DNA of 64,000 bases from Mytilisepta virgata (lineage: Eukaryota > Mollusca > Bivalvia > Mytilida > Mytilidae): positions 46,020,150 to 46,084,149 of the forward strand of contig CM051514.1 in the NCBI GenBank assembly GCA_028015205.1. Reading direction: 5' to 3'. A program made the position numbers and the translations under genes. Below the pieces are notes generated by a model. That model saw only the letters and a list, made by a program, of their open reading frames with translations. It was not told the origin of the DNA and did not search any database. This document shows, piece after piece, positions 17,570 through 63,974 of the stretch (positions are counted from its first letter, which is position 1; the number at the start of each line of letters is the position of its first letter).

Positions 17570-18544
17570 TGCTAAGTTTTCCTTTACAGAATCATGTCTA
17601 CTTCTGGCAGCTTCTGAACTGGTACTTCTGATTTTTATGTAGGAATCTTTGTAAGAGTGTCTAGAAACACAAACATAGATGAGTGTGATGAGTAGAATTG
17701 TTCGTTATTGTGGAAATGGAATGCTTCTGGTCCATTATTTGTTCGTCTAACGTTAGACGGAATTTCAGCCCACACTAATGGTGGAAACATTGCATTATCA
17801 TCTACTTTTGTTCACAAAAAATAATCGGCAAAGACCTGAACTTGGCACATCAGGAACTAAATCCTCGGAAAAAACTGTCACCTACATCCCGGATTAAGAA
17901 AAGCTAATCCAAAAAATGGTCTAACCATTTACTATTGTCAGTCACCTTTTCTTGGTCTTTTGCTAGACCTAGAGCCTGTACTTTTCTCCACCATGCCTGA
18001 CCGAGATGGAATATACAAGATTTAATAACAAATAGATGGTAATAAATGAATAGATAAATTGTTTAAATACACAAATCAAGAATGAATCTCTTGCAGCTGT
18101 CATCGAGTAATGAAAGCATTTTCCAGTCACAGGCTTCTGATTTCGATGGTAACAAACAAAAGACCAGTGAAATGTAATCACCATCATTCCTAAAGCTATG
18201 TATCGTAAACATATATTTTTGCTTGAAATACTTATTACAACATGTGTATGTTCCATCAGCAACTGTACATAGAAATTTCAAATTAGCCTCACATCCAAAT
18301 AAAATTATCCCACTTTCAAAATCATTACATGGCACAAAGTCTCATCCTTATTTGTGACAACGCCAATATCATCAAGAATACTATGGAATTCGGCTTGATT
18401 TTTGGGTTGTGCCGGATGAAGTTTCCTTCTTTCCCTGTTCATAGATTGACGTACGTATTTTAAGTCAATCTTTTCCAAATTTTCTTTATCTATTTTGAAA
18501 AGTTTAGAGATGGTCTTTGAAGGTCGTTCTGATATCATATCCAC
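17570..18544 (-). pseudogene. Mutator-like (MULE) transposase relic
   Basis: Minus-strand fragments align with a MULE transposase in order. An N-terminal piece (18544-18310) carries RRKLHPAQPKNQAEFH. A catalytic-core piece (18335-18063) carries DGTYTCCNKYFKQ, MFTIHSF, and the strand ISLVFCLLPSKSE. Near 17745-17650 a C-terminal piece reads RTNNGPEAFHFHNNEQF. Known MULE proteins have DGTF--CP-YF-QL-TIHG...VPLVF-LLP-K followed later by RTNN--E-FH. Frameshifts and stops separate the pieces, so it is dead. The upstream end runs into the 64-bp tandem array. Confidence 0.65.
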
Positions 18545-19013
18545 TGCTTTCCTTTACAAGCTGTTCAGAGTTGATGGTCTTTGAAGGTCGTTCTGATATC
18601 ATATCCACTGCTTTCCTTTACAAGCTGTTCAGAGTTGATGGTCTTTGAAGGTCGTTCTGATATCATATCCACTGCTTTCCTTTACAAGCTGTTCAGAGTT
18701 GATGGTCTTTGAAGGTCGTTCTGATATCATATCCACTGCTTTCCTTTACAAGCTGTTCAGAGTTGATGGTCTTTGAAGGTCGTTCTGATATCATATCCAC
18801 TGCTTTCCTTTACAAGCTGTTCAGAGTTGATGGTCTTTGAAGGTCGTTCTGATATCATATCCACTGCTTTCCTTTACAAGCTGTTCAGAGTTGATGGTCT
18901 TTGAAGGTCGTTCTGATATCATATCCATGCTTTCCTTTACAAGCTGTTCAGAGTTGATGGTCTTTGAAGGTCGTTCTGATATCATATCCACTGCTTTCCT
19001 TTACAAGCTGTTC
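18504..19013. repeat. 64-bp tandem repeat, about eight copies
   Basis: Unit of exactly 64 bp (anchors GAGTTGATGG at 18568, 18632 and 18696, and so on), nearly identical between copies; one copy near 18926 lacks a base. The first unit overlaps the 5' coding end of the MULE relic, so the array probably arose by recent amplification of transposase 5' sequence. A + strand frame through it is a by-product of the repetition. Confidence 0.85.
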
Positions 19014-22819: not shown

Positions 22820-24007
22820 CTACATTTGCCTTTGCTTCAGTTTAGTCAAAATAACTTGCTCTCTTTGTGTCATTTTCTCACATTCAGTGCTGTAAAATAT
22901 AAAATTTGAGTTCCATTTTGATGATGAAACCAAATATTCTGTTACATTTATAGCATCATTTTCGCAATAATTGCGAACCTCTTTTAATATCTTTTTGAAA
23001 TGAGTTACTTCCTCAAAAAACTCGTTTCCTTCTTTCTGAATTCGAAGTAAAAGTTTTGATTTGAAATACTCATACAACATGTAATCAGCCTTGTTGTAGC
23101 TTTGAAGTCGATGCCTAAAGTCATCTGTAATGCTGACTTTTGCTTTTGACATTAAGACATTTTTATCTTTATAAATTATATCCTTCAAGTCCCAGCATAA
23201 GTATCTTTTAAGTAAAACTAATGATTCGTCGAAATACTCAAGTACCATAACCAAGAGAAAATCCTTGTCTAATCGCCTCAGATGCTGTTGAATTTTATCT
23301 TCTGCATAGCAGTCTTCCAAAAGTATTCCAAAATCTCTCGACATTCTATTGTGAATATATTTTTGACGGATTTCAGGTACTATGTTCGGACTCTTTAGGA
23401 ATCTATACAACACTTCTTCTGCTGATAAAGACTGGTTAAGTCTATGCTTTAGTAGACCAGTGAAATCGTAATATTGCGTAGCTGAAATGAAATGTTCCTC
23501 GGGGTCACGTACTATTCCGATATAAACTGTATCTGATGGCATGACCCTTGAAAAAGCTTTTTTATCATAAACGGCGTGGTTACACAAAATGTTGTACGAT
23601 TGGTTCAGTTGTAAAGGAATAATATCATCTAGTTTAAATGGCCTATCAATAGGCGCTAAATAATTCATTGCTGGACTCTTTGGTATGGCGACATTTAAAT
23701 TATAAGAAACTGCAAATCTCAAGAATATATTTTGTAAAGTAGTTCCACCAGCTTTATGGACCTTCAAGAAAGCAATGTTTTTTTGCTTTATTACACATTC
23801 CAAACCAGACGATGCTCCATATTCATGCATATGTAACAAGATTGCTGTGGAGTTATTTTTCCTGATTGAATTTGTTTTCCCAACGAATATTTTCGCAATA
23901 GTAAAAGTACCTTTTACTCTATTATTTAATTTGTACGTCATATAAATGCTGAATATTGCCATGGTAAACATCGGGAAATAGAACAACTTTCTGTCAAAAA
24001 AAAACAA
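22820..24007 (-). CDS. Galactose-3-O-sulfotransferase-like, single exon
   Basis: 395 aa type II Golgi enzyme of the Gal-3-O-sulfotransferase family (GAL3ST1-4; vertebrate members about 400-490 aa), predicted to transfer sulfate from PAPS to the 3-OH of galactose. Short cytosolic tail and signal anchor at residues about 9-25. The 5'-phosphosulfate loop is at about 79-92 (AFLKVHKAGGTTLQNIFLRF). The 3'-phosphate site is at about 161-177 (VYIGIVRDPEEHFISA). A family-like LCWDLKDIIY lies near residue 272. Oriented opposite to the three HNK-1-type genes. Intact frame; the ATG chosen gives a normal short tail. Acceptor (glycolipid or glycoprotein) not predictable. Confidence 0.85.
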   Translation of the reverse strand: MFFFDRKLFYFPMFTMAIFSIYMTYKLNNRVKGTFTIAKIFVGKTNSIRKNNSTAILLHMHEYGASSGLECVIKQKNIAFLKVHKAGGTTLQNIFLRFAVSYNLNVAIPKSPAMNYLAPIDRPFKLDDIIPLQLNQSYNILCNHAVYDKKAFSRVMPSDTVYIGIVRDPEEHFISATQYYDFTGLLKHRLNQSLSAEEVLYRFLKSPNIVPEIRQKYIHNRMSRDFGILLEDCYAEDKIQQHLRRLDKDFLLVMVLEYFDESLVLLKRYLCWDLKDIIYKDKNVLMSKAKVSITDDFRHRLQSYNKADYMLYEYFKSKLLLRIQKEGNEFFEEVTHFKKILKEVRNYCENDAINVTEYLVSSSKWNSNFIFYSTECEKMTQREQVILTKLKQRQM

Positions 24008-31119: not shown

Positions 31120-31947
31120 ATGAACATGAGGAAAATCTATCTTAGCCTGGGCTTACTTTTGTTTTTTTCTTTGTCAATTTTGATCATGAGTAAATTTAAC
31201 AAACCAGTTTCAAACAAATTTTCGAATATATCATCAGCAGATTTGGTAAAAATTAAATGGAATACCAAAACGTTCCGTTTGCCTTCATCTCCTGTTATCG
31301 TTTCAAAATATAAATTAATCTTCTTCTTTCATCCAAAAGCGGCATGTTCTTATTGGAGATATCTGCTACAGTATATTCAAGGACACGAACTAAATGTATC
31401 AAAAAAGATACATAACGTGCCATTCGAAGGTTTTGATTTATTGACTCATTTACCAAATTATACTGATGATGAGGTACTTAAAATGTTAAATGATAAAACG
31501 TGGACAAAAGCTACATTTGTGAGAGAACCGCGGGAAAGGATATTGTCCGCTTACCTGAATAAAGTTGTTAACACAAAATTTGCGTGGAATAGATGTCAAC
31601 AGAAAGCTAAATCTTTTGACGATTTTTTGGAATTAATACAAAAATGTCCAGACCCTCACTGGGAATCACAGGTGCGTCTTCCTCGATATATGTATGATAC
31701 CATGATGATTGGAAAAATGGATGATATAACGGGTTTTACCGAAAGGCTTTTACGAAAAATTGGTGCATGGAGTTACAGCATTAAAAAATGGATAAAAACT
31801 GATAAATTCATTATGAGCACGAGATATCACGCAACTAACTCAAAAAATAAATTAATAAGATTCTATAATAAAGATAGACAGGACAAAATATTTAATATAT
31901 ATTCTGAAGACTATGAAGTATTCAAATTTGACAGATCATATTTTTGA
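31120..31947 (+). CDS. Short HNK-1-type carbohydrate sulfotransferase
   Basis: 275 aa, predicted type II Golgi PAPS-dependent glycan sulfotransferase. Signal anchor at residues about 5-24. The 5'-phosphosulfate motif is at about 64-80 (KLIFFFHPKAACSYWR) and the 3'-phosphate motif at about 130-147 (ATFVREPRERILSAYLNK). Later motifs PHWESQVRLPRYMYD and the terminal YEVFKFD parallel the two long copies. It lacks the ~200-residue lumenal extension of those paralogues, so the catalytic domain follows the stalk almost directly, as in ordinary CHST proteins. Either this is the ancestral architecture or the extension was lost. Intact single exon; start chosen at the first ATG before the anchor. Confidence 0.82.
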   Translation: MNMRKIYLSLGLLLFFSLSILIMSKFNKPVSNKFSNISSADLVKIKWNTKTFRLPSSPVIVSKYKLIFFFHPKAACSYWRYLLQYIQGHELNVSKKIHNVPFEGFDLLTHLPNYTDDEVLKMLNDKTWTKATFVREPRERILSAYLNKVVNTKFAWNRCQQKAKSFDDFLELIQKCPDPHWESQVRLPRYMYDTMMIGKMDDITGFTERLLRKIGAWSYSIKKWIKTDKFIMSTRYHATNSKNKLIRFYNKDRQDKIFNIYSEDYEVFKFDRSYF

Positions 31948-38600: not shown

Positions 38601-41600
38601 CAAATTAATAGTACCATTTTCTATGTGAAGTGAGCTAACAAATGTCATGGTCTTGTGCCATCTTCAGAGTAAATAATACCCATATACATATATATATATA
38701 TATATATATTCTGAAAGGCCATTATGTTAGCATTGTTTCAATCATGATAAAATAAATAAAAAATATCCATGGAAACCTAGTTGGCATAGCAACATTTCAA
38801 AAATTTTCATAAAAAAAGCTTTAAAACTGTTATATTTTTTCAGTCAATATTACAATTTTGAGGTTAAGACGTTTATTATTTATCTATCATGTAGTCAAAC
38901 TTTACCAACTCTAATAATTAATAAAATTCTGGGGGTGCATTTCTCTGAAACTAAGATAATTAGTGGAGTGTAAACACTGGGTGAATTATCGAATTTGATT
39001 TCACTCGGAAATCCCGGTATTTCACCACACTCAATGTAATAAATAGTCTATAAAAAATAAAAAAGTTAGAAATAAAAGAAAAGTTTAGGTCACAAGCTTA
39101 AATTCACAATTTTCGAAATGCCACCCGGATGGGCCCCAAGTTTTTGAAAATTTAAATGCTAAAACCTTATTGTACGGCTATATACAAGGTGTACCAATAC
39201 TATATGGAAGCAAAATGCATACTGTGCAAAAAAGTGGAGCTTAAGTCATAACTTCAAAATTCGACCCCTATGGGCCTCAAGTTTTGAAAATCAAAATTTT
39301 ACAACATATAGTGTATGACAATCGTATATTGAAATAAAATGCATAAAGTGCATTATATAGTGAAAAATAAAAGAGAAGTTTAGGTCACAAGCTTAAATTC
39401 ACAATTTTCGAAATGCGACCCTGGTTGGACCCAGTTTATGAAAATCAAAATTCTAAATATTTTTGCACACCTACATACAGTGTGTGCCAACATTTTATGG
39501 AAATAAAATGCATAAAGTGAAAAAATTAAAGATTGAAGAGTTTAAGTCACAAGCTTTGTAAATCAAAATTATAAATTTTATTGCGCTCCTACAAATATTG
39601 TTTGACAATATAGTATATAGAAATAAAATACATAAAATGACATTGGAGTATATTTCACAAGCTTGAATTCACTATTTTCGAAATTCGACCCCTGTTTTAA
39701 AAATCAAAATTCTAAACCCTTATTGCGAATTTACATACAGTATGTAACAAAACTGTTTAGGAATTGAATGCTTCAATTTTGTAGTTTTATCGGAATGTAA
39801 AAGTCTTGACCGAAGCACCTTTTGTATGAAGCACGGTCAAGGCTTAAAACTGTTAAAATGATGCATTCAATTCTTATAATTAAATTATAAATTTGACAAG
39901 TATGAAATATGACTTAGATATTTAAATACTCTCCGTATTGTCTTGGAATATTACTCCGCTGCATTGTAGCATGGAAGAACGTGCTAAATAAGATTTTGAC
40001 TTTTAATGGGTTATAAAACATAACTTTTCAGAATTGATTGATATTCGCCAATAAAAATATGGATTTCATGAAACAAACAAGTAATGTTATTATATAGAAA
40101 TAAAATACATGAAATTAAAAAGAAACGAGGATTTTAGGTCAAAAGAACGTGTTATGGAGGTGTGGACGGACGGACGGACAGACGAACGAACGGGGAAGAC
40201 AGGGCCCATAACACTATACCCGAAGCAATAAAATAAACAATAATTGCAATGTGGTGTATAGATTATGATTGGTCGACAACGTGACGTATGGGATCTATTA
40301 TTTTCGGATAAATGACGTTCAGCGTATGAATATGTGACACAGTAAAAGAGTTCAAACGCTCATTTCTTTCTTATTTTGCCGAAAAGTGTAATTATTATGG
40401 AATTATAAGCAATAAGAGTTGTTTTCTGCAATGTATCGATGTATAAACTTGACCAGGTCCCTCACAAACTTAACACAAAGTCCTTCTTTGTTCAGTTTAT
40501 GAGTGAACTGGTCTCCTTTATACACCGATAATAAAAAATAAGTTGAGTCAGTCACTACTTGCACTAAAAACCTTCTCTTCCACTTACCGTTAATGTAAAT
40601 TCATAAATTAATTGAGGAGTTTTAAAATTCAACATTGTAAAGATACTAAGTCTCACATAATAATTTTTACTTGTAATATCATATTCAAACTTGCACATGA
40701 ATTGCATTAATTAATATTCGCATCCTATTGTCGATTGTTGATTATAAGTGGAAAAAAACAAATTCCTAATTTAGAGTAATTACAATGTATAAAGAATCCG
40801 AGTGCATCACATGCACATATATCTAAATACTCTGTTCATTGTAGACAAATATCCAAGAGAGGTTGGAGAAAAAAATCCCCAGGTTTGGGCAGACCAACAA
40901 GTAATGATAATGGATTGTATGACAAGTCTCTCTGTTTACAAATATGTATTTATTATTGATACCGATGAATTCATGATACCAACCTACCCAGAACTTAAAG
41001 GGTCTTGGAAACGTTTTTTCGTAAGTATTATATTTACCTTTAAGTTTAAAACAATACATCTAGCAGAATAGCTTCTTTGTAGGTCTCTTTACAAAATGTA
41101 AAATACAAATACGAAATGTAAATGAAAAATCAATTGCCCTAATATCTGCAATAATGAATTATGAATAATTTCCAAAATCTGCTGGTTTTTATATGATCTC
41201 ATTTTTGGATATGATTTAGTATTCCGCGGGAGAAAATACTGATAAAATGGGGAACAATGAGAGAATCTACATTCTCTGGCGGTGTAATGTTACATGTACT
41301 TTCTGTCCGTATACGTCATCAGTTGTGTCGTTGTGGCGGTAAAACCAGAAATCAATGGAAGTATCATACATTTGTAAATGTACTCATTTTATTATGTCCA
41401 ATTACTATAAATTTACAAGAACAAAAAAAAAGAAAGCTAGCTGCTTCTCACAAAAATAAGGGTTAGAGTTACAATGTAGGGTTCATTCCAATGTAGTATT
41501 TAACGTTTTGTTTATTTATTGTCTTTATTTATTGACGGCCTCGGTGGTCTCGTGGTAGCGTGCTCGCCCCGAGTGCGGAAGGTCGCGGGTTCGATCCCAT

Positions 41601-44600
41601 TCCGGGTCAAACCAAAGACATTAAAATTGGTATTTGCTGCTTCTCCGCCAAGCACGCGGCATCTAGGAGTAAGAGCAAAGACTGGTCGGCTCGGAGTCAG
41701 TATAATGTGTCCGAGTGAGGTGATATGTCTTCCTGCGGACAGTTACCTCGTGAGCTACCACATTAAAAATCCGACTTAGCGTGTCGGTCTAGTACAAAGC
41801 AGGGATCATATTCATTATCATATCAACATGTTCTCGTCCTGATATGCACCTGGTTGCCACTGGACGTTAAACAACAATTCATCCATCCATCCATCTTTAT
41901 TTATTTATTTATGAATGTTTTTTATTTATTTTTTTAAATTTAATATAGGATTACACAAGCTGACTATGCTTTATCCAATAAATATGTTGAAGTTATTTAT
42001 TTATTGTAAAAAGTAATTCAGATATCAAATGTTTTAATCAAATCTGAAATACAATGTATATATCTTTGAATGGTTTGGTTTTTTGTAAATAGGATGAGAA
42101 GTTCCAGAAGAAAATTGCTGGTATGATTTTTCAGACCGTATACCATATAACATCTAATAGAACAGAAAGTGAAAGCCAGCTTTTTATTGGACGATACATG
42201 AACTCTACAGTACCACTTTTTGATCGACAGAAATATGTATTTATGCCAACCCGTGTTGTTCCTGAATCATTAACTATACATCACTTTAGAGCAAAGGCCG
42301 GATATATTGGGTAATAGCTGGATTTATTACACTTTTAACGTTATGTCGCCAGTAGTATGTATGCGGTTCTAAATTAGTATTTGAGGTGGAGGAGCTGTGG
42401 AGGAGCCGGAAGTGACGTCACCGGAACCGGAAATGACGTCACAGGAAGTGACGTAACCGGAACCGGAAGTCACGTGACCGGAACCGAAAGTACCGGAAGT
42501 GGTTTGCGCGCATGCGCAACCGGAAGTAGTGGTTTTTCCCGCCATTTGTTGACGGAAGTGACGCAAGTCACGTGCTAGGACCCGGATGTGTCGTCCGCGC
42601 ATGTGTGACCGGAACCGGAAGTACCCGGAAGTGGTTTGCGCAACCGGAAGTAGGGTGTTTTTTCCGCCATTTGTTGACGGAAGTGACGTAAGTCACGTGG
42701 TAGGACCCGGAATTGTGGTCTGCGCATGTTCGGGCGGAACCGGAAGTGGTTGGTGCAACCGGAAGTAGTGGGTTTTCTCCATTGACGGAAGTGACTTACC
42801 CGGAAGTTCCATGCTTGACCAGATTGAATTATCTCCCTTTTCCCGCACTTCTCGGTCGTCTCTGGCTCTTTCGTCGGTCTCTAGGGTCTGATACTCTCAC
42901 TGTTATGTCGAAGTCCGAGAGTATACGAAGTACACTATTGGATTATCTCCCCTTATCCCGCTCTTTTCAGTATTTTCTGTGAGGACCAGATTTGTTTACG
43001 GAAGTGACGTAAGTCACGGACCCGGATGTTGATGCTTGACCAGATTGAATTATCTCCCTTTTCCCGCTCTTCTCGGTCGTCTTTGGATCTTTGATTGAAT
43101 TATCTCCCCTTATCCCGCTCTTTTCATCTGTGAGTGATGTTTTCTGTGAGGACTAGGATTGGATTATGTCCCCTTACCTCAAGTTGATGCTTGTCACCGC
43201 TCAATGGAGGGGTGTCCTTAGCAACGGCGGTCTATTTCATTGCTCTATGCTTCGCTTCTCTTCGCTTGCTCTTCGCTGCTCCATGCTGCTCATCGCTAAT
43301 AATGACTATATTCACCTGCTGATTTAAGATTCTTGGGGTTACTTGTCGGTGTTTTCGCTGCTGCTTCCGCTCCTGCTGCTTGTTGGTGTTCGTCATTGCT
43401 GCTCTTATCTTGTTCATCGCTGTTTTTCTCGTGCTCTTTGCTGCTCATCGCTGTTTTTCTCTTGTTCTTTGTTGCTTATCACTGTTTTTCTCTTGCTCTT
43501 TACTGCTCATCACTGTTTTTCTCTTGTTCTTTACGGCTCATCACTGTTTTTCTCTTGCTCGTTACTACTTATCGCTGTTTTTCTCTTGGTTTTTGTAGCT
43601 CGTCGCTGTTTTCTCTTGGTTTTTGTAGCTCGTCGCTGTTTTTCTCGTGCTCTTTGCTGCTCGTCGCTGTTTTTCTCTTGTTCTTTGTTGCTCATCACTG
43701 TTTTTCTCTTGCTCTTTACTGATCATCACTGTTTTTCTCTTGTTCTTTACTGCTCATCGCTGTTTTTTCTCTCGCTCTTTGTTGATCATCACTGTTTTTC
43801 TCGTACTCTTTGCTGCTCATCGCTGTTTTTCTCTTGCTCTTTACTGCTCATCACTGTTTTTCTCTTGCTCTTTACTGCTCATCACTGTTTTTCTCTTGTT
43901 CTTTACTGGTCGTCACTGTTTTTCTCGTGCTGTTTACTGCTCATCGCTGTTTTTCTCTCGCTCTTTGTTGATCATCACTGTTTTCTCGTACTCTTTGCTG
44001 CTCATCGCTGTTTTTCTCTTGCTCGTTACTGCTTATCGCTGTTTTTCTCTTGGTTTTTGTAGCTCGTCGCTGTTTTTCTCGTGCTCTTTGCTGCTCGTCG
44101 CTGTTTTTCTCTTGTTCTTTGCTGCTCGTCGCTGTTTTTCTCTTGTTCTTTGCTGCTCATCGCTGTTTTTCTCTTGTTCTTTGTTGCTCATCACTGTTTT
44201 TCTCTTGTTCTTTACTGTTCGTCGCTGTTTTTCTCTCGTTCTTTACTGCTCATCGCTGGTTTTCTCTCGCTCTTTGTTGATCATCACTGTTTTTCTCGTA
44301 CTCTTTGCTGCTCATCACTGTTTTTCTCGTACTCTTTGCTGCTCATCGCTGTTTTTCTCTTGCTCGTTACTGCTTATCGCTGTTTTTCTCTTGGTTTTTG
44401 TAGCTCATCGCTGTTTTTCTCTTGTTCTTTGCTGCTCATCGCTGTTTTTCTCTTGTTCTTTACTGCTCATCACTGTTTTTCTCTTGTTCTTTACTGCTCG
44501 TCGCTGTTTTTCTCTCGTTCTTTACTGCTCATCGCTGTTTTTCTCTTGCTCTTTACTGCTTATGGCTGTTTTTCTCTCGCTCTTTGTTGATCATCACTGT

Positions 44601-47600
44601 TTTTCTCGTACTCTTTGCTGCTCATCGCTGTTTTTCTCTTGTTTTTTGTTGCTCATCACTGTTTTTCTCTTGTTCTTTACTGCTCATCACTGTTTTTCTC
44701 TTCTTCTTTACGTCTCATCGCTGTTTTTCTCTTGCTCGTTACTGCTTATCGCTGTTTTTCTCTTGGTTTTTGTAGCTCATCGCTGTTTTTCTCGTGCTCT
44801 TTGCTGCTCGTCGCTGGTTTTTCTCTTGTTCTTTGTTGCTCATCACTGTTTTTCTCTTGCTCTTTACTGCTCGTCGCTGTTTTTTCTCTTGTTCTTTGTT
44901 GCTCATCACTGTTTTTCTCTTGCTCTTTACTGCTCATCGCTGTTTTTCCCTTGGTTTTTGTAGCTCATCGCTGTTTTCCACGTGCTCTTTGCTGCTCATC
45001 GCTGTTTTTCTCGTGCTCTTTGCTGCTCATCGCTGTTTTTCTCTTGGTTTTTGTAGCTCGTCGCTATTTTTCTCGTGCTGTTTACTGCTCGTCGCTGTTT
45101 TTTCTCTTGCTCTTTGTTGCTCATCACTGTTTTTCTCTTGCTCTTTACTGCTCATCACTGTTTTTCTCTTGTTCTTTACTGCTTATTGCTGTTTTTCTCT
45201 TGGTTTTTGTAGCTCATCGCTGTTTGTCTCTTGCTCTTTACTGCTTATCGCTGTTTTTCTCTCGCTCTTTGTTGCTCATCGCTGGTTTTCTCTTGGTTTT
45301 TGTTGCTCGTCACTGTTTTTCTCGTGCTGTTTACTGCTCGTCGCTGTTTTTTCTCTTGTTCTTTGTTGCTCATCACTGTTTTTCTCTTGCTCTTTACTGC
45401 TCATCACTGTTTTTCTATTGTTCTTTACTGCTTATCGCTGTTTTTCTCTTGGTTTTTGTAGCTCATCGCTGTTTGTCTCTTGCTCTTTACTGCTTATCGC
45501 TGTTTTTCTCTCGCTCTTTGTTGCTCATCGCTGTTTTTCTCTTGGTTTTTGTTGCTCATCACTGTTTTTCTCGTGCTCTTTACTGCTCATCACTGTTTTT
45601 CTCTTGTTCTTTGTTGCTCATCACTGTTTTTCTCTTGCTCTTTACTGCTCATCGCTGATTTTCTCTTGCTCTATGCTTCTCATCGCTGTTTTTCTCTTGT
45701 TCTTTGTTGCTCATCACTGTTTTTCTCTTGCTCTTTACTGCTCATCACTGTTTTTCTCTTGCTCTTTACTGCTCATCAATGTTTTTCTCTTGTTCTTTAC
45801 TGGTCATCGCTGTTTTTCTCTCGTTCTTTACTGCTCATCGCTGTTTTTCTCTTGCTCTTTACTGCTTATGGCTGTTTTTCTCTCGCTCTTTGTTGCTCAT
45901 CACTGTTTTTCTCTTGTCCTTTGTTGTTCATCGCTACTCCTTACCTTACTCGCGTGCTTATTTCGTTTTTTGGGGCTACTTGTCTCTGTTTTCGCTGCCA
46001 CTACTGCTCTTGCTGCTTTTTGCTGTTCGTTATCGCTGCTCTTCTCTTGCTCATCGCTGTTTTTTCTTTTGCTCATCGCTGATCCTTTCTTGTTCTTTGC
46101 TGCTCATCCCTACTCAGGGCCTTACTCGCGTGCTCATTTCGCTCCTGCTGCTTGTTGCTGTTCGTCATCGCTGCTCTTCTCTTGCTCATCACTGCTCTTC
46201 TCGTGCTCATCGCTGCTCTTCTCTTGCTCTTTGCTGTTCATCGCTACTCATGATCTTACTCGCGTGCTCATTTCAGTTTTTGGTGCTATTTGTCACTTTT
46301 AATCGCTGCTGCTGCTACTGCTGAAGGAATGTAGTTTACTGCTGATGATCGGAAGGCCACTCGGTACTCATGTTGTCGGTTTGATTGGTAGATCAAGACT
46401 GATCGATGTGATTGTATACTGGGATATTTATCGACGACAAACACAAATGAAACAGTTCCATATTTTATTTTACAAAATCTACATCAGTCAATGTTTTGAG
46501 TTCTGGTTCTTTCTCTTCAAACAAAGGTATGATCTTCTTCAGTTCTTTCCATTCGAAGGTGTCCAAGCCGATTCCTCTCTTTGTTGGACGATAGGTCCAG
46601 TCTCCCCGGGGTATAAAGTGCTTTCTTATCCAAATAGTGGGGTATGGGGATTTGACGGTGACGAATACATTGTCCCCAATGTGATATCTCCAGTCGACTA
46701 GTTCTTTATCCTGTACTCTACCGATCAAATCGTCCACCACTTCTGTGGTACTGCACAACATTTTCCATTGTATCAAAGATAAGCTCACTCCGGTCTTGGT
46801 GGGCACCGTTTCACTTTCCCAAAATCTCAAATCTACTCTTTTACTGCCATTCCATTCTGTCAGCTCTGCATACGTTCCTCCACCAAGTAGTACTTTCAAA
46901 GGAATATCGGAAGCTGTCATGGCGTCTTGGACGATATCGCTCTTGGTCTGGTCTTTGGTTTTCTTTTCTTTACGAGACATGTCGGCTGACTGATTCCTCT
47001 TCTTGCTGGTCTATTTATATATATATATTTGTGAAGATGGACTGGATTGGTTCTTATATTATGAAACGTGAAACAGGATTGGCTATCTTTAAGACATCTT
47101 GATTGGTTAACTTCTTCCGCTCCGATTGGTCGAAAATCTGTCATTTTCATTGGTCAATTCCAACCTTTTCGATAGATCAACACGATGGTACACTGTCCAA
47201 ATATGCGCCGCCCAATCCGGAAACTGCTCACAATAGGTACGAGTAAACACCGACAATACGACCAGTCTTCCTTGGTTCACCACACCGTCTTCGAACATGG
47301 CAGTGACGATTCTCTCGTATACTTGGAAGGGGTCCATCGTACGAATGACTTCTCTGACTATCTTCACTTCCTTTTATACATTTATGACATGAGACTACTC
47401 TGCATTGACAAACTTGTAACTGTCTACGTATATACATGTATATATAGTGTTGCCAGAAGATCCCGATACCGGGGTTTTGTATCTGAGGCACTGGCAGTCC
47501 ACCCGGACAGAGGAAAATACCGACAATCGTGTTCAGGATGAACGAGATCACATCCGCCACCTTTCCTGATATGGTTCGCCACACATTCAACCTACAAAAT

Positions 47601-50600
47601 ACGACCTTCAAGATCAACGTGTCGTTTGGATTTATACTGAGAAACGCAGAGATCGGAGAACTAAGATACTTCCATTCCAGGACGGGGACGAATGTTCTCT
47701 GTCTCGATGATGTTAGATGGACATCAAAGATGGCTGCACCCATTCTCTTGGTTTTTGCTGCTCATCGCTGTTTTTTTCTTGCTCTGCTAATGATGACCTT
47801 ACCTCATTTCAGTTTTGGAGCAACTTGTCGCTGTTTTCGCCGCTGTTGCTAGTGGTGGTCGATTGTTGTTAGTCAAAGATTGGATCTGTGCGAGAGCACC
47901 CTTAGATCCGGGTTATTTAAAAGTCCACTCTGCATTTATCCAGGCTTGTGACTGGCTATCATAAGATAGGCTGCATTAATCCTGCTCAATTTTTTAAGGG
48001 CACTCTGCATTTGTCCAGGCTTGTGACTGGCTGTATATATGTATAAACATATATAGGCTGCATTACCCTCCTTCCCTTTTTTTGTTATATTTTTTTCTGT
48101 TTTTCTTTGTAATATGTTCCAATTCCTCCGTCACATAGAGTCATTGCTGTCTTCAGCTGGAGGTGGGTCGTAGTCGTTCAATACACGGTTAAGCAGATAT
48201 TTTCGTTTTTCTACGGCCTAATCCCATGATTCTTTTGATTCGTAGTCTTCCTATTCTCTCCAGCGTTTAGCCGTTTTTCTTGATCTCTCTATGTACGGGG
48301 TCTTTATTTATGTCTTGATGCCAGGACACCAGTCCGAGGTAATGCTTTCGTATTTCGTCTCTGTATGAGTCAAACATGTCTCTATATGCTGCCAAGCGTG
48401 CCTTGTCTTCTTCCATTCCGGCTTCCACTACGTTTACTGTCTGTAAGTATTCCGATTGATGTACTTGAAATATTATGTTCAAAACGACTTCCCATAGGGA
48501 CTGTTCGCAAAGCTCTTCGGAGTCTTTGTTGGATCCATGGTCACTACTTTGTTCCGATTCATCGTTATCGGCTTCTGTGGTGGTGTCTGAAGCTGAATCA
48601 CTATAGTCTGTTGAATCCTCTTCAATACCATGTGCATTCTTTTTGTGTCGCACTAGGTTAAAGTTTTGCTTGGATTGGTATCCACAGGTATACATTTAAG
48701 ACGTCTTTATTTCCTGGTAGTCGATAGCAGAATGAGTTCCGGTCGTCCTGCAAGTGCTTATATTAGATACAGGTTCCTCAGCGGCTTGTTGATTCATACA
48801 CAAGCGTTTGGCAAAGTATTCGTTTCGACATTGTTGCAGTTCAGATTTCACTTTTCTGATGAGGTCTCTTTTAAGTCTTTTCCACTCGTTGTCAATCCTT
48901 CTACATCCCTTGCAGATATTCATGTTTTTGTAGAAGTCCGCAAAGCTCTTGTTCGTTTGACACTTTTTACATTTCTTGTTTGGATCCACTTTGTTGGGTC
49001 CTCCACTTGTGTTATCCAGCCGTTTGGTTCTCTTCACTTTGGTTAGAAGTAATTTCCTTTTCCTTTGTGGTTTTGCTTTGGTGTTAGAAAGATCCACAGG
49101 TATTAAATATCTAGCAGGAACCACTAAATCAACGAGAGGCGTTTTCGATCCCATTGATACGTGTGTGTTGTTTGACGGTCTTAAACAAAACCTCTGATTA
49201 TATTTTCGTTAAAAGCTTTTCATTGGTGTCATGGTGACGAAGATTATCCCACACAGTTCGCTGTTCGTTGTTGCTATTGCTGCTGAGGAGGTGAAGGTGG
49301 GATTCTCACTGTTTCGTTATAAGTCACCTCTTAGTCTCGTTGATGTTACGATGGATACAAAAGATGGCTGCGTTCATGTAACGCGGACCTGAAAGAGAAC
49401 ACCCTTATGAAACAGAAATTTTAGAGTCTTTCCGGACGGGAACGAATGTTCTCGGTCTCGTTGATGCTACGACGGACATCAAAGATGGCTGCCCCCAAGT
49501 AACGCGGACCTGAAAGGGAACACCCTAATGAAACGAAAATTTCAGAGTCTTTCCGGGCGGGAACGAACGTTTACGGATTTCAGTCCTAACCCTAACTCCA
49601 GTCCTAACCCCAACTCTAATCCTAACCCTAACCCTAACCCTAACTCTAACCCTAACCTTAGTCCTGCTTCTAACCCTTATCGTAGGTCTGTCTCGTACTC
49701 CTACTCTAACAACTGATACTTCACGTTGTTGGATCACCTAAGCAAGCGTGACTGTTTGCCTCGTGTTTGTCACGCTTGCACCAGTGAACCACCGGTGTGG
49801 GGTATCAGTTGTTAGAGTAGGAGTACGAGACAGACCTACGATAAGGGTTAGAAGCAGGACTAAGGTTAGGGTTAGAGTTAGGGTTAGGGTTAGGGTTAGG
49901 ATTAGAGTTGGGGTTAGGACTGGAGTTAGGGTTAGGACTGAAATCCGTAAACGTTCGTTCCCGCCCGGAAAGACTCTGAAATTTTCGTTTCATTAGGGTG
50001 TTCCCTTTCAGGTCCGCGTTACTTGGGGGCAGCCATCTTTGATGTCCGTCGTAGCATCAACGAGACCGAGAACATTCGTTCCCGTCCGGAAAGACTCTAA
50101 AATTTCTGTTTCATAAGGGTGTTCTCTTTCAGGTCCGCGTTACATGAACGCAGCCATCTTTTGTATCCATCGTAACATCAACGAGACTAAGAGGTGACTT
50201 ATAACGAAACAGTGAGAATCCCACCTTCACCTCCTCAGCAGCAATAGCAACAACGAACAGCGAACTGTGTGGGATAATCTTCGTCACCATGACACCAATG
50301 AAAAGCTTTTAACGAAAATATAATCAGAGGTTTTGTTTAAGACCGTCAAACAACACACACGTATCAATGGGATCGAAAACGCCTCTCGTTGATTTAGTGG
50401 TTCCTGCTAGATATTTAATACCTGTGGATCTTTCTAACACCAAAGCAAAACCACAAAGGAAAAGGAAATTACTTCTAACCAAAGTGAAGAGAACCAAACG
50501 GCTGGATAACACAAGTGGAGGACCCAACAAAGTGGATCCAAACAAGAAATGTAAAAAGTGTCAAACGAACAAGAGCTTTGCGGACTTCTACAAAAACATG

Positions 50601-53600
50601 AATATCTGCAAGGGATGTAGAAGGATTGACAACGAGTGGAAAAGACTTAAAAGAGACCTCATCAGAAAAGTGAAATCTGAACTGCAACAATGTCGAAACG
50701 AATACTTTGCCAAACGCTTGTGTATGAATCAACAAGCCGCTGAGGAACCTGTATCTAATATAAGCACTTGCAGGACGACCGGAACTCATTCTGCTATCGA
50801 CTACCAGGAAATAAAGACGTCTTAAATGTATACCTGTGGATACCAATCCAAGCAAAACTTTAACCTAGTGCGACACAAAAAGAATGCACATGGTATTGAA
50901 GAGGATTCAACAGACTATAGTGATTCAGCTTCAGACACCACCACAGAAGCCGATAACGATGAATCGGAACAAAGTAGTGACCATGGATCCAACGAAGACT
51001 CCGAAGAGCTTTGCGAACAGTCCCTATGGGAAGTCGTTTTGAACATAATATTTCAAGTACATCAATCGGAATACTTACAGACAGTAAACGTAGTGGAAGC
51101 CGGAATGGAAGAAGACAAGGCACGCTTGGCAGCATATAGAGACATGTTTGACTCATACAGAGACGAAATACGAAAGCATTACCTCGGACTGGTGTCCTGG
51201 CATCAAGACATAAATAAAGACCCCGTACATAGAGAGATCAAGAAAAACGGCTAAACGCTGGAGAGAATAGGAAGACTACGAATCAAAAGAATCATGGGAT
51301 TAGGCCGTAGAAAAACGAAAATATCTGCTTAACCGTGTATTGAACGACTACGACCCACCTCCAGCTGAAGACAGCAATGACTCTATGTGACGGAGGAATT
51401 GGAACATATTACAAAGAAAAACAGAAAAAAATATAACAAAAAAAGGGAAGGAGGGTAATGCAGCCTATATATGTTTATACATATATATAGCCAGTCACAA
51501 GCCTGGACAAATGCAGAGTGCCCTTAAAAAATTGAGCAGGATTAATGCAGCCTATCTTATGATAGCCAGTCACAAGCCTGGATAAATGCAGAGTGGACTT
51601 TTAAATAACCCGGATCTAAGGGTGCTCTCGCACAGATCCAATCTTTGACTAACAACAATCGACCACCACTAGCAACAGCGGCGAAAACAGCGACAAGTTG
51701 CCCCAAAACTGAAATGAGGTAAGGTCATCATTAGCAGAGCAAGAGAAAAACAGCGATGAGCCGTAAAGAACAAGAGAAAAACAGTGATGAGCAGTAAAGA
51801 GCAAGAGAAAAACAGTGATAAGCAACAAAGAACAAGAGAAAAACAGCGATGAGCAGCAAAGAGCACGAGAAAAACAGCGATGAACAAGATAAGAGCAGCA
51901 ATGACGAACACCAACAAGCAGCAGGAGCGGAAGCAGCAGCGAAAACACCGACAAGTAACCCCAAGAATCTTAAATCAGCAGGTGAATATAGTCATTATTA
52001 GCGATGAGCAGCATGGAGCAGCGAAGAGCAAGCGAAGAGAAGCGAAGCATAGAGCAATGAAATAGACCGCCGTTGCTAAGGACACCCCTCCATTGAGCGG
52101 TGACAAGCATCAACTTGAGGTAAGGGGACATAATCCAATCCTAGTCCTCACAGAAAACATCACTCACAGATGAAAAGAGCGGGATAAGGGGAGATAATTC
52201 AATCAAAGATCCAAAGACGACCGAGAAGAGCGGGAAAAGGGAGATAATTCAATCTGGTCAAGCATCAACATCCGGGTCCGTGACTTACGTCACTTCCGTA
52301 AACAAATCTGGTCCTCACAGAAAATACTGAAAAGAGCGGGATAAGGGGAGATAATCCAATAGTGTACTTCGTATACTCTCGGACTTCGACATAACAGTGA
52401 GAGTATCAGACCCTAGAGACCGACGAAAGAGCCAGAGACGACCGAGAAGTGCGGGAAAAGGGAGATAATTCAATCTGGTCAAGCATGGAACTTCCGGGTA
52501 AGTCACTTCCGTCAATGGAGAAAACCCACTACTTCCGGTTGCACCAACCACTTCCGGTTCCGCCCGAACATGCGCAGACCACAAATCCGGGTCCTACCAC
52601 GTGACTTACGTCACTTCCGTCAACAAATGGCGGAAAAAACACCCTACTTCCGGTTGCGCAAACCACTTCCGGGTACTTCCGGTTCCGGTCACACATGCGC
52701 GGACGACACATCCGGGTCCTAGCACGTGACTTGCGTCACTTCCGTCAACAAATGGCGGGAAAAACCACTACTTCCGGTTGCGCATGCGCGCAAACCACTT
52801 CCGGTACTTTCGGTTCCGGTCACGTGACTTCCGGTTCCGGTTACGTCACTTCCTGTGACGTCATTTCCGGTTCCGGTGACGTCACTTCCGGCTCCTCCAC
52901 AGCTCCTCCACCTCAAATACTAATTTAGAACCGCATACATACTACTGTCGCCATGTGATAAAATAATATTTTAGTGCCTCGAATATAAGATTAAACGAAT
53001 CTTTTACATGGTATTTAATTTTTAAAGCATTGTCTGCATATACTTAGTAGGATATATAGACCTTATTTGTAATAAATTTGATAATAGTTTGATAATATGC
53101 ATAAAATATATAAAGAAAAGCCCAAACATACATGTACTAATAAATATATCTGAATTTGGCTTTAAGGATGCTTGCTGGTCATGTTTTGGTCTTTTTGTCA
53201 GATTTTCGGAATCCTCCGGTTTTATCCATTTTTTAAACATTAAATTTTTTGCCCATGAACCCCCACTTTTTCTTTTATAATTCAATCATATATACCTTAA
53301 AATGGTATTTGACAAAATTTTATGAAATCCTTTTTATTTTTTCATACATTTTTGAGAGACTGGAGTTGTCAGTGCAAAGACAATAATCCATCCTTATACA
53401 ATGACAGTAAAAAAAAACGGTTTCCCTTTGTGTCCTGTCCCACCCGTATTTGAATTGTGTTTGTTAAATTGTTGAACTGGTTATCTTCCCGAAGAAACAT
53501 GAGATTTTTTCCAGTGTACGTTAAGCAAAAAACAATAAATCAATCAATGTATTGGAGTTGATAAGCAAAATTGTCCATATTGTTCTTTATTTTCAGGTCA

Positions 53601-59750: not shown

Positions 59751-59855
59751 ATGGAATTATTCGTGAAAAGGTTATGCCAACTCAGGTTTTTCAGTTCAGC
59801 ACGACAACGTCAAACAGAACAGTCGATTATTTTGGTTACTTTAATTTTTCCGGCA

Positions 59856-60614
59856 ATGGCTGACCAGGATTCTGATTCTCAAGAGCAGGATGTCTCCCTT
59901 AAAGATGTCATGAAAGCAGTCAAGGCTCAAGGTGACTTAAATGCTAAATTAAGTAAAGACATTGCTAATTTAAGACAAGAAGTTCATGGGGCTTCCGTTT
60001 CTGTCGCATCTCAAGTTAAAAAGTTAAAAACTGAATCCCAATACAAATGGAAGTATGAGGGGAATAAAGTACAGCTTATGCTTAATTCCGAGTTATTGGA
60101 AGACCTGACACAATCTATCTGGGCTATTGACAACACTAAGATTGATTATGCTCGTGAAACCATAACCGAGGTAATTGAAAAGATCCAGAAGCGCAATAAA
60201 CATATTAAAATTGCAGACGGCAGCGAAGGGGGATGGGAAACTGTAAGACAATATGAGAGTAACCCAGTCGCCAGCGACTCTGACGATGAAAATAAGATCA
60301 ATAAAGCAGAGAACAGAGCTTTACGCAAACGCAATGCCAAGGGTAAAAAGCCTGCTGTCAAGGCGAACAATGCTAGTCAAAATACTTCTCAATTTGTTGC
60401 TACTTTTCCAGTTAAGAATCAGCCCTTTCGTGAGCCTCCAACATGGTACAGCGGACCTGCACTGTACCAAGGACAACCCATGCCTAGCACGAGCGGATAT
60501 CAACGACGAAATCCACAACAAGGAGCCTGTTATGGATGCGGAGCTTTTGGACACTGGAGGAATCAATGTCCGTTCAACCCTAGAACAGCACCAGCCATAT
60601 CAAAACCAAAATAA
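59856..60614 (+). CDS. Gag-like protein with CCHC zinc knuckle
   Basis: The frame is open from 59751, but the ATG at 59856 (GGCAATGGC) gives a more natural start (MADQDSDSQEQDV), 252 aa. Coiled-coil-prone N-terminal half (DVMKAVKAQGDLNAKLSKDI), a basic region (ALRKRNAKGKKPAVK) and a C-terminal CCHC knuckle (CYGCGAFGHWRNQC). Binds element RNA and builds the particle, by analogy. The 3' end overlaps the RT frame, which is +1 relative to Gag, so RT expression needs frameshifting, reinitiation or splicing. Confidence 0.7.
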   Translation: MADQDSDSQEQDVSLKDVMKAVKAQGDLNAKLSKDIANLRQEVHGASVSVASQVKKLKTESQYKWKYEGNKVQLMLNSELLEDLTQSIWAIDNTKIDYARETITEVIEKIQKRNKHIKIADGSEGGWETVRQYESNPVASDSDDENKINKAENRALRKRNAKGKKPAVKANNASQNTSQFVATFPVKNQPFREPPTWYSGPALYQGQPMPSTSGYQRRNPQQGACYGCGAFGHWRNQCPFNPRTAPAISKPK

Positions 60615-62661
60615 GACCGAATTCGTAAAAGATAAGTATAGTTTAATTTTGGCAGATATTAATACAAATTTTGAACATGATAATGAATCCGATAATCTTA
60701 CTCATGATTATTATGAATATGAACAGGGCCAGGCTAACATTATAGTCAAAGACAGATTAAAAAACCATTATTCTTTTTGGAAAAGTATTGGATGTTATGA
60801 TTATATATTGGAAACCATTTTTAATGGATACAAAATTCCCTTTTACAGTACCCCGCCATCTGTTTGTTTACCCAACAATCGATCAGCAATCATCCATAGC
60901 GAGTTTGTCACCGAAGCTATTCATGATCTTTTGATTAGGGGATTAATTGTAGAATGTGATAATCAACCGTACGTTGTTAATCCGCTTACTGTTTCTGCAT
61001 CTGACAATAGAAAGAAACGTTTGATATTAGACCTTAGACACGTTAATAAACATCTTTGGAAAACTAGTGTTAAATTCGAGGATATTCGAATAGCCATGGA
61101 ATTTATTACAAACAATTCTTTTTGTTTTCAGTTTGATATTGTATCAGCTTATCATCATATTAACATTTTTATTCCACATACAGAATTTCTAGGTTTCTCA
61201 TGGAAGTGCGGTAATACAGTTAAGTGGTACAAATTTTTGGTACTTCCATTTGGCTTAAGCTCTGCTTGTTACATATTCACTAAGATTACTAGACCACTTA
61301 TAAAAAAGTGGCGTAGCGAAGGCAAACAGGTGTTAATGTACTTAGATGACGGCTTAGGTACTCATACGGATGAGGCAATTTGCAGATCTATGTCCGAGCA
61401 AGTTAAGCTAGATTTAATTATGAGTGGCTTTGTTCCGAAAAATGAGAAGTCAAAGTGGTCTCCGGTTAAACATGTGACTTTTTTGGGTTACGCTATTGAC
61501 ACTGACAAAAGTATTATTAAAATACCAGATGACAGACTTAAAAAAGTTCTTACAACTATTTTTGACATTGAATTTTATCTTACAAAATTTGGTAAAGTGC
61601 ATTGTAGATTAGTTGCTTCTTTGGTGGGACAAATCATATCTATGGCCTATGTCATTGGCAATGTAGCCTATATCATGACAAAATATTTGAGTATTAATAT
61701 TTTAGAAAAAGCTTCATGGAACAATTGTATCGAGTTGACCGAAAATAGTGTGAATCAAATTAATTTTTGGAAAGACAATCTAACTCAAGTAAATTGTAAA
61801 AAATTTACTTCAGATTTATCTATTCAATCTATTGTGTATAGCGATGCAAGTGATACTGGGTACGGTGGTTACATTGTAGAGACTCCCTTTGATATTGCAC
61901 ATGGTATGTGGACAGAATGTGAATCACACAAGAGCTCTACATGGAGAGAACTTATCGCCGTCAAAAATATTTTATTATCTATTATCAGTAAATTAAAGGA
62001 TAAACGCATTACATGGTTTACAGACAATCAGAATATAGTAACAATCGTATCTAAAGGTAGCATGAAACTTGAATTACAGGATATAGCATTGTGTATTTTT
62101 GAAAATTGTGTGCAAAATAATATTTCTATTGATCTAGAATGGGTCCCTAGAACTGACAACGATAAAGCCGACTACATTAGTCGTATCATTGATTATGATG
62201 ATTGGGGTGTTGTGTATGAACTATTTATGTATCTGGATTCCTTGTGGGGACCCCATGAGATAGACTGGTTTGCTAATGACGACAATAACAAGCTAACGGT
62301 ATTTTATTCCCGTTACTGGACGGTCAACTCGATGGGCATTGACGCCTTTACAATGAACTGGCATGGTATTAATGGGTGGTTTGTACCACCTGTTTGTCTA
62401 GTAGCAAGAGTGTTACGCTATATGAAGCAATGTATGGCACATGGGACAATTATTTTGCCCCTATGGAAATCGGCAAATTTTTGGCCAGTTTTGTCTCCTG
62501 CTGGTGAAGGGTTTATTAAGGAGTTGAAGGCTTGTGTGGATTTACCGACTAACAAAGAATTTTATACTCTTGGTAAAGGTAATAAATCGGTATTTGGAAA
62601 TATTGATTTACCCTTCAGGATGTTGGCTTTGAGAATGGATTTTGGTACTAACACATACTAA
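60500..62661 (+). CDS. Reverse transcriptase-RNase H of the YR element
   Basis: The frame is open from 60253, but the first part is a shadow of Gag; real coding probably starts around 60500-60620. RT: GRLK-like KDRLKNHYSFWKSIG, KKRLILDLRHVNKHL, FQFDIVSAYHHI, LPFGLSSACYIFTK and the catalytic LMYLDDGLGTH. RNase H: IVYSDASDTGYGGYIVE, WRELIAVKNIL, WFTDNQNIV and DNDKADYISR carry the expected acidic residues. After it comes the DIRS-type tail (EIDWFANDDNNKL, DAFTMNW, PLWKSANFWPVL). No frameshift within; looks intact. Confidence 0.85.
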
Positions 62662-62978
62662 TTTCTATAAATATTTTTTGAAGGTGACAGTTTATTTTTT
62701 CTCATTTTCTTAAATTCAAATATCAGTGGTAGCGAGGGTAACATCCCATTTAATGGGATTTGTATGTAGATGTATGACCAGCTAGGTATTGGTGGTGGGT
62801 TATTTACATGTATCATAGTATGTAGCTTTGATCTAGTTAGTAGTAGTGGTTGTATTACGCGATGAACGGTGCATTAGTAATAATTTTTGAATGAACTTTG
62901 TGTTTAACTTATGATTATGTTTGTATTTTCTATTATATTGTAATAATATGATTTTCATTTTTACATATGTTTTTTCAG

Positions 62979-63974
62979 GCTTTCCAGAATGATTTATCGG
63001 AATTGCCTGCTTTACTTGTGGAAAAAATCTCGTTACTACCTGGATTGTTATTGGAATGTAAATCTACCAACACAGTTCAAAATTATTATTATGGTTTTTT
63101 AAGATGGTAAAAATGGGCATTATCGAATGGAATTTCTGGTGAATTTATTTTACCCGCTAAACCGATTCATGTTGCTTTATATTTAGCCTGCTTAGTTCAG
63201 CAAAGTGTTTCACCCAGTCCTATCAATCAAGCGTTTTATAGTATCAGATGGGCACATTATATTACTAGCTTGAGTTCTCCAACAGATTCTAGTTTAGTGA
63301 AAAATATTCTGGAAGGTGCTAAGAGGCGTTTATCAATTCCAATTAAGAAGAAAGAGCCAATAACACCAGAGTTGCTTTCGAATATGTATGATAAAATTTT
63401 TTGTCTTAAAAATTTGTATACTCAACGTACAATTTGTGCCTGTTTATTAAGTTATTCGGGATTTCTACGAGTGTCCGAATTGTTAAATCTTCAGTCATGT
63501 GATATCGTATTTTTTCACAGTCATATGTCCGTTTTTATACAGAAAAGCAAAACTGATATCTATAGAGATGGTGATAGAATAGTTATCGCTAGGACCGGAA
63601 ATAAACTGTGTCCCGTAAAAAATTTAGAAATGTATTTGGAATGGAGTAGCAATCCTTCGGATAGTGATGTTTACTTGTTTCGTAATCTGACCAAGCTAGA
63701 AGATCATTATATATTTCGCAAAGATAACAAGCCGCTTTCGTATACAAGGATGAGAGAATTGTTTATAGAAGCCTTTTCGCCGTTTGTTCAAAACATTAAA
63801 TCTTTCGGTTTACACAGTTTACGCGCTGGTGGAGCCACCGCAGCATATAACTTTGGAATTTCAGATAGACTTTTTAAAAGACACGGGAGGTGGAAGTCAG
63901 AGACTGCAAAAGACGGTTACGTGAAGGACTCTTTCTCTGAAATAATACAAGTTTCACTAAATTTGGGTCTATAA
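62979..63974 (+). pseudogene. Tyrosine recombinase with N-terminal nonsense codon
   Basis: The catalytic domain is complete: the first Arg in SGFLRVSELLNL, H-x2-R in LHSLRAGGATAA, His in RHGRWKSE and nucleophile Tyr in DGYVKDSF. It would integrate the circular cDNA. The N-terminal core-binding part is readable from about 62979 (after a splice-like TTTTTTCAG), through SELPALLVEKISLLPG and NYYYGFLRW, then a TAA at 63108-63110 and on with KWALSNG in the same frame. The nonsense codon removes the normal N-terminus; translation could restart only at 63270, giving 234 aa. Confidence 0.75.

What the first reader, a model, noticed from the sequence alone, without database searches (positions are those of the whole stretch)
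42345..52952. Recently inserted 10.6-kb palindromic element with a perfect 6-bp target duplication
Seen: GTCGCC on both sides, inverse ends AGTAGTATG/CATACTACT, and two arms that pair over about 3.1 kb with only isolated differences. Known: Polinton/Maverick and retroviral-type integrases give 5-6-bp duplications, and Polintons start with AG and carry long inverted repeats. Inferred: a defective virus-like DNA element, possibly of an undescribed kind because almost its whole length is inverted repeat and it carries its own unusual small genes.
Basis: partly seen in the sequence, partly recalled or inferred. Interest (0 to 1): 0.88.

Follow-up and report, generated by a model that had tools for sequence, protein, structure and literature searches.

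The report
Folded-back relic of an integrating virus
A 10.6-kb stretch of this animal-like genome looks like a broken virus of the Maverick/adintovirus kind that was copied back on itself into a mirror-image molecule and then inserted with a clean 6-base target duplication.

Summary
A 10,596-bp element (42351-52946) is flanked by GTCGCC/GTCGCC, starts AGTAGTATG and ends CATACTACT; about 60% of it is two mutually paired arms. Clean arm positions differ at 4 of 3,120, but at 11 of 33 beside the centre. The left half is 4.2 kb longer than the right; the border lies in 31-bp repeats.

The ends, (AGT)2//(ACT)2 with a 6-bp duplication, are the commonest Maverick end type in a vertebrate survey (PMC8097293). 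The left half encodes a double PC4-domain protein (Pfam 7.6e-14). The best viral structure match of its model is 'MOSUB' of a lancelet adintovirus (E 7.7e-07). Beside it is a weak Bcl-2 match. No polymerase, integrase or major capsid gene was found in the frames scanned.

Best reading: a defective Maverick/adintovirus derivative. A displaced strand folded back at an imperfect inverted repeat and was copied into a palindrome with the same end twice; a Maverick-type integrase then inserted it. The copying, helper and integrase steps are inferred. No second copy could be sought: the genome search did not complete (12 requests). A new variant of a known kind.

The parts
42345..42350 (.). left copy of the 6-bp target duplication GTCGCC
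52947..52952 (.). right copy of the 6-bp target duplication GTCGCC
42351..52946 (.). whole element, 10,596 bp, ends AGTAGTATG / CATACTACT
42351..43560 (+). left outer arm; its first 480 bp are dense in CCGGAAGT (10), TGACGT (6) and CACGTG (3)
51737..52946 (-). right outer arm, mirror of the left outer arm
43414..45935 (.). 31-bp tandem array, about 81 units; its first part is shared with the right half, the rest is not
46465..46980 (-). 171-aa open frame, two PC4 stretches, structural match to adintovirus MOSUB
   Evidence: Pfam 7.6e-14; model; viral structure library E 7.7e-07
47107..47337 (-). 76-aa open frame with a weak match to Bcl-2 (BH1 part)
   Evidence: Pfam E 0.0013, below its cut-off; 0.00065 for the frame 47110-47373
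47743..49752 (+). left inner arm
49769..51778 (-). right inner arm, mirror of the left inner arm; overlaps the outer arm in 31-bp repeats at the deletion border
48696..49154 (-). 152-aa frame with a CxxC...CxxC pattern; mirrored at 50367-50825 (+)
   Evidence: no relative found
48267..48695 (-). 142-aa frame in the same phase after a stop, with a weak C2H2-like start; mirrored at 50826-51254 (+)
49585..49657 (+). degenerate telomere-like CCTAAC repeats, 12 units; mirrored at 49864-49936
49720..49801 (.). imperfect central hairpin: 16-nt loop (49753-49768), perfect 11-bp stem, then 22 positions with 11 imperfect pairs

Best explanation
It is an integrated, defective derivative of a Maverick/adintovirus-type virus. 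During protein-primed replication a displaced strand carrying one genome end and its accessory region (7.4 kb) lacked its other end, folded back on a pre-existing imperfect inverted repeat, and was copied into a palindrome with the same (AGT)2 end at both tips. Such a molecule keeps the end signals for priming and integration but lacks polymerase, integrase and capsid genes. A helper Maverick's enzymes would replicate it and insert it with a 6-bp duplication. One half later differed by 4.2 kb, most simply by loss between 31-bp repeats. SHOWN: ends, duplication, palindrome, imperfect centre, PC4-type gene, no core gene in the frames scanned. INFERRED: fold-back copying, helper dependence, integrase origin, loss rather than gain of the 4.2 kb.
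For: Ends and 6-bp duplication equal the commonest vertebrate Maverick type. PC4-type protein with best viral structure match MOSUB of an adintovirus. Weak Bcl-2 match beside it; a preprint says some adintoviruses carry zinc-finger genes and most mammal-associated ones appear to carry anti-apoptotic homologues and/or candidate oncogenes (PMC11071296, passages). Mismatches concentrated at the centre, 11 of 33 against 4 of 3,120, as copying from a primed hairpin predicts. True ends lie at the outside only; no 16-mer of the element recurs in the flanks. The symmetric ancestor, 2 x 7,410 bp = 14.8 kb, falls in the reported size range of intact vertebrate Mavericks (12.7-24.6 kb).
Against: No PolB, integrase, ATPase, protease or major capsid match. 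No second copy, parent or helper was seen. The arms (3.2 kb) are longer than the reported vertebrate Maverick inverted repeats (46-1,447 bp) and the element is shorter than the smallest intact one (12.7 kb). The Bcl-2 match is below Pfam's cut-off. The MOSUB match is structural only, at 19% identity, and no PDB match of the same model reaches E 0.001. The same stops in both arms mean that the interrupted gene was already broken when the arms became alike, or that conversion has since evened them out.
Confidence: 0.6

Rival explanations
1. A hairpin-ended replicon: the unit is a 7.4-kb linear DNA with one Maverick-type end and one closed, imperfectly paired hairpin; the palindrome is its normal replicative dimer, as in turn-around replication of parvoviruses or poxviruses (recalled).
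For: The centre is an imperfect hairpin with equal-length sides, 5 of its 11 non-Watson-Crick pairs being G.T (P 0.02, weak). Telomere-like repeats lie just outside it.
Against: No replication gene of those virus groups was found in the frames scanned. One example cannot show that the turning point is fixed.
Confidence: 0.13
2. Palindrome made in the chromosome after insertion, by inverted duplication of part of a Maverick or by a second insertion in opposite orientation.
For: Fold-back inverted duplications occur in chromosomes at short inverted sequences (PMC3907307, passages).
Against: Both true ends are at the outside within one perfect duplication; mirror symmetry stops at the ends (71 of 200 flank positions).
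Confidence: 0.1
3. A foldback-type cut-and-paste transposon with tandem repeats in its arms (FB or TU type).
For: Long arms containing tandem repeats.
Against: 6-bp duplication and (AGT)2 ends rather than the 8-9-bp duplications recalled for those elements; the PC4 gene with an adintovirus-like model; no transposase match.
Confidence: 0.07
4. Assembly fold-back: part of the right half is a false mirror of the left.
For: Near-identical arms are a common artefact signature (general knowledge).
Against: Different host flanks with a matching 6-bp duplication, a 4.2-kb difference between the halves, scattered arm differences and an imperfect centre.
Confidence: 0.06

Closest known systems
Mavericks/Polintons of vertebrates (PMC8097293; section 7 and found passages read)
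   Same: (AGT)2//(ACT)2 ends, 6-bp target duplication, inverted terminal repeats, accessory genes near the ends.
   Different: No PolB, integrase, ATPase, protease or capsid gene found in the frames scanned; arms of 3.2 kb and a palindromic layout; 10.6 kb instead of 12.7-24.6 kb.
Adintoviruses (PMC11071296, passages; the founding paper was not held)
   Same: A protein whose model best matches adintovirus MOSUB; a weak Bcl-2-like frame and zinc-finger-like frames.
   Different: Lacks the PolB, hexon and integrase by which that preprint defines the group.
Symmetric recombinant (SYREC) and other palindromic defective genomes of adenoviruses (recalled; searches did not list such a paper)
   Same: A protein-primed genome end duplicated at both tips of a palindrome that lacks core genes.
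   Different: Here integrated in a chromosome with a target duplication, and one half is 4.2 kb shorter.
Fold-back inverted duplications of human chromosomes (PMC3907307, passages read)
   Same: Short inverted sequence and an unpaired spacer at the turning point.
   Different: Chromosomal, with spacers mostly of kilobases, and without mobile-element ends.

Membership tests
Maverick/Polinton | 5'-(AGT)2//(ACT)2-3' or related repeated end motif | tested here: met
   AGTAGT...ACTACT against PMC8097293
Maverick/Polinton | 6-bp target site duplication | tested here: met
   GTCGCC on both sides
Maverick/Polinton | terminal inverted repeats (46-1,447 bp in intact vertebrate elements) | tested here: met
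   present, but the arms total 3.2 kb, beyond the reported range
Maverick/Polinton | protein-primed PolB and retroviral-like integrase genes | tested here: not met
   no match among 18 sequences (17 distinct frames) scanned with Pfam; short frames and the frames of the 31-bp array were not scanned
Maverick/Polinton | capsid, ATPase and protease genes | tested here: not met
   no such match in the same 18 sequences, except a chance-level herpesvirus small-capsid match (E 2.8)
Adintovirus | PolB with OTU-like domain, hexon and rve integrase (definition in PMC11071296) | tested here: not met
   definition from passages
Adintovirus | MOSUB-type PC4/MoSub1-like protein (not a defining gene; the name is known here only from library entries) | tested here: met
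   Foldseek E 7.7e-07, TM 0.67, 19% identity to MOSUB of lancelet adintovirus
Adintovirus | anti-apoptotic (Bcl-2-like) accessory gene (common, not defining) | tested here: inconclusive
   Pfam Bcl-2 E 0.0013 / 0.00065, below its cut-off; best PDB match BAX E 0.23
Fold-back palindrome of a protein-primed genome | same genome end at both tips | tested here: met
Fold-back palindrome of a protein-primed genome | imperfect inverted repeat confined to the turning point | tested here: met
   11 of 33 positions differ beside the centre against 4 of 3,120 elsewhere
Fold-back palindrome of a protein-primed genome | parent genome with the same end but unique sequence beyond the turning point | not tested
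   genome search unanswered 12 times
Foldback-type transposon (FB, TU) | 8-9-bp target duplication (recalled) | tested here: not met
   6 bp
Hairpin-ended linear replicon | covalently closed hairpin end in a free DNA form | not testable with these tools
   needs DNA of the organism

The most novel reading that the evidence does not exclude
The palindrome is not an accident but a working genome form: a satellite of adintoviruses, built of one virus end, an ssDNA-binding-type PC4 protein and a Bcl-2-like protein around a hairpin turn, that spreads as a self-complementary DNA using a helper's polymerase and integrase.
Probability: 0.15. Interest if true: 0.85.

Novelty: new variant of a known kind. 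Interest (0 to 1): 0.62.

Why it matters
If the reading is right, this is a chromosomal fossil of a snap-back (palindromic) genome of a Maverick/adintovirus. It would be sequence evidence that these elements are copied outside the chromosome through displaced single strands, as adenoviruses are, and that their integrase accepts any molecule with two proper ends. It would also mean that helper-dependent defective genomes of these viruses arise and enter chromosomes. The test is simple: the same 40 terminal bases with 6-bp flanks, in this and related genomes.

Tried and rejected
Searches that led nowhere. IMG/VR with the 152-aa, PC4 (alone and as alignment A1), 142-aa and Bcl-2-like proteins, with the 19 bases at 42351-42369 and with a 31-bp-array pattern: no relative. 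An outer-arm motif hit one contig, L001. Its frames look like a bacterial prophage (by eye, no family search) and its best match to the window is 20 bases: chance. GTDB contigs with A1: none. Phage records with the PC4 protein: none. Rfam over 41500-53500 and tRNAs over the window: none. Protein collection: 152-aa frame, 7 candidates, none scored; 121-aa frame at 47487-47849 (+), 2 candidates, none scored. The 142-aa model was poor (pLDDT 56.6) and was not searched.

Rejected: that nearly all of the element is inverted repeat (60%), and 'recent' as a dated claim.

Full report
What is there. The window holds a 10,596-bp element at 42351-52946, flanked by the direct 6-bp repeat GTCGCC (42345-42350 and 52947-52952). 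It begins AGTAGTATG and ends CATACTACT. Two arms face each other in two blocks: 42343-43560 with 51737-52954, and 47743-49752 with 49769-51778. Clipped to the element they cover 60% of it. The left half is 7,410 bp and the right half 3,186 bp. The surplus of the left half, about 43561-47742, consists of most of a 31-bp tandem array (43414-45935, about 81 units) and a gene island. Its borders lie in 31-bp-type repeats on both sides (sequences), so loss by recombination between repeats is the simplest account, though gain is not excluded. GC is 43.8% against 33.4% in the rest of the window. No 16-mer of the element recurs elsewhere in the window.

The centre. Away from the centre the arms differ at 1 of 1,190 (outer) and 3 of 1,930 (inner) clean positions. 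I left 20 + 47 positions beside the deletion borders out of these counts; they hold 6 more differences. In the 33 positions beside the central 16 nt, 11 differ; random placement of those 15 mismatches would give this with P = 3e-20. Seen as one strand, the centre is a 16-nt loop, a perfect 11-bp stem, 22 positions with 11 imperfect pairs (5 G.T, 6 others), then perfectly paired arms. It is the only perfect 11-bp stem with a loop of 3-30 nt in the element; the same count gives 4 in the rest of the window. Fold-back copying predicts this: the priming hairpin keeps its old imperfections, and what is copied after it is a perfect mirror. In human inverted duplications, short inverted sequences and a spacer at the turn were likewise taken as signs of fold-back (PMC3907307, passages). 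An imperfect closed hairpin end would look the same.

The ends. A survey of vertebrate Mavericks reports conserved 6-bp end motifs, the commonest being 5'-(AGT)2//(ACT)2-3', with 6-bp target duplications, and explains the repeats by the 'jumping-back' of protein-primed replication (PMC8097293, section 7 and passages). The present ends match letter for letter. Homology of the arms to a known Maverick was not tested: no collection of eukaryotic DNA was available that answered.

How it most likely works. Protein-primed genomes are copied from both ends by strand displacement (established for adenoviruses; expected for Mavericks). A displaced strand that lacks its other end can fold back at an inverted repeat, prime itself and be copied to the same end. 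The product is a palindrome with two good ends: fit for priming and for the integrase, but without core genes, hence dependent on a helper. Adenovirus 12 is recalled to form such symmetric recombinants; two literature searches did not list that work. A fully symmetric ancestor would be about 14.8 kb (2 x 7,410), within the size range of intact vertebrate Mavericks. The first 480 bp hold 10 CCGGAAGT, 6 TGACGT and 3 CACGTG, against 2, 29 and 6 in the rest of the window outside 42301-53000. They are partly copies of one another (125-bp repeat) and may mark a strong promoter or enhancer at each end; that these are ETS, CRE and E-box sites is recalled.

Rivals. A hairpin-ended replicon, a chromosomal rearrangement after insertion, a foldback-type transposon and an assembly fold-back are weighed in their sections. 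The artefact reading is made unlikely by unlike flanks inside one perfect duplication, the 4.2-kb difference of the halves and the imperfect centre. The post-insertion reading is made unlikely by both true ends lying at the outside.

Limits. There is one copy only; the genome search that would test for more was asked 12 times and never answered. I saw no report of a palindromic Maverick in the listings, which show the top 20 of 324, 15 of 48 and 15 of 146 papers; most subscription papers are not held. Verdict: observation confirmed, interpretation partly supported, a new (palindromic, defective) variant of a known kind.

Noticed in passing
59751-63971 (+): Frames with a zinc knuckle, reverse transcriptase plus RNase H, a weak Dam-methylase match and a tyrosine recombinase: the make-up of a DIRS-type retroelement (label recalled).
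   Followed up: partly
763-2208, 13138-14574, 22820-24007 (-), 31120-31947: Four sulfotransferase genes in one window; the first two are 78.6% identical over 1,447 aligned columns.
   Followed up: no
18509-19013: 64-bp tandem repeat, 7.9 copies at 99%.
   Followed up: no
47675-47742 and 49429-49497: A 68-bp piece at the border of the gene island recurs in the 121-bp repeats near the centre (85% and 93% in two parts).
   Followed up: no
49585-49657 and 49864-49936: Degenerate telomere-like CCTAAC repeats lie close to the centre of the palindrome in both arms; no explanation.
   Followed up: no
42093-42311 (+): Open frame with AG and GT at its borders (by eye), a possible host exon about 30 bp before the insertion; no Pfam family above cut-off.
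   Followed up: partly
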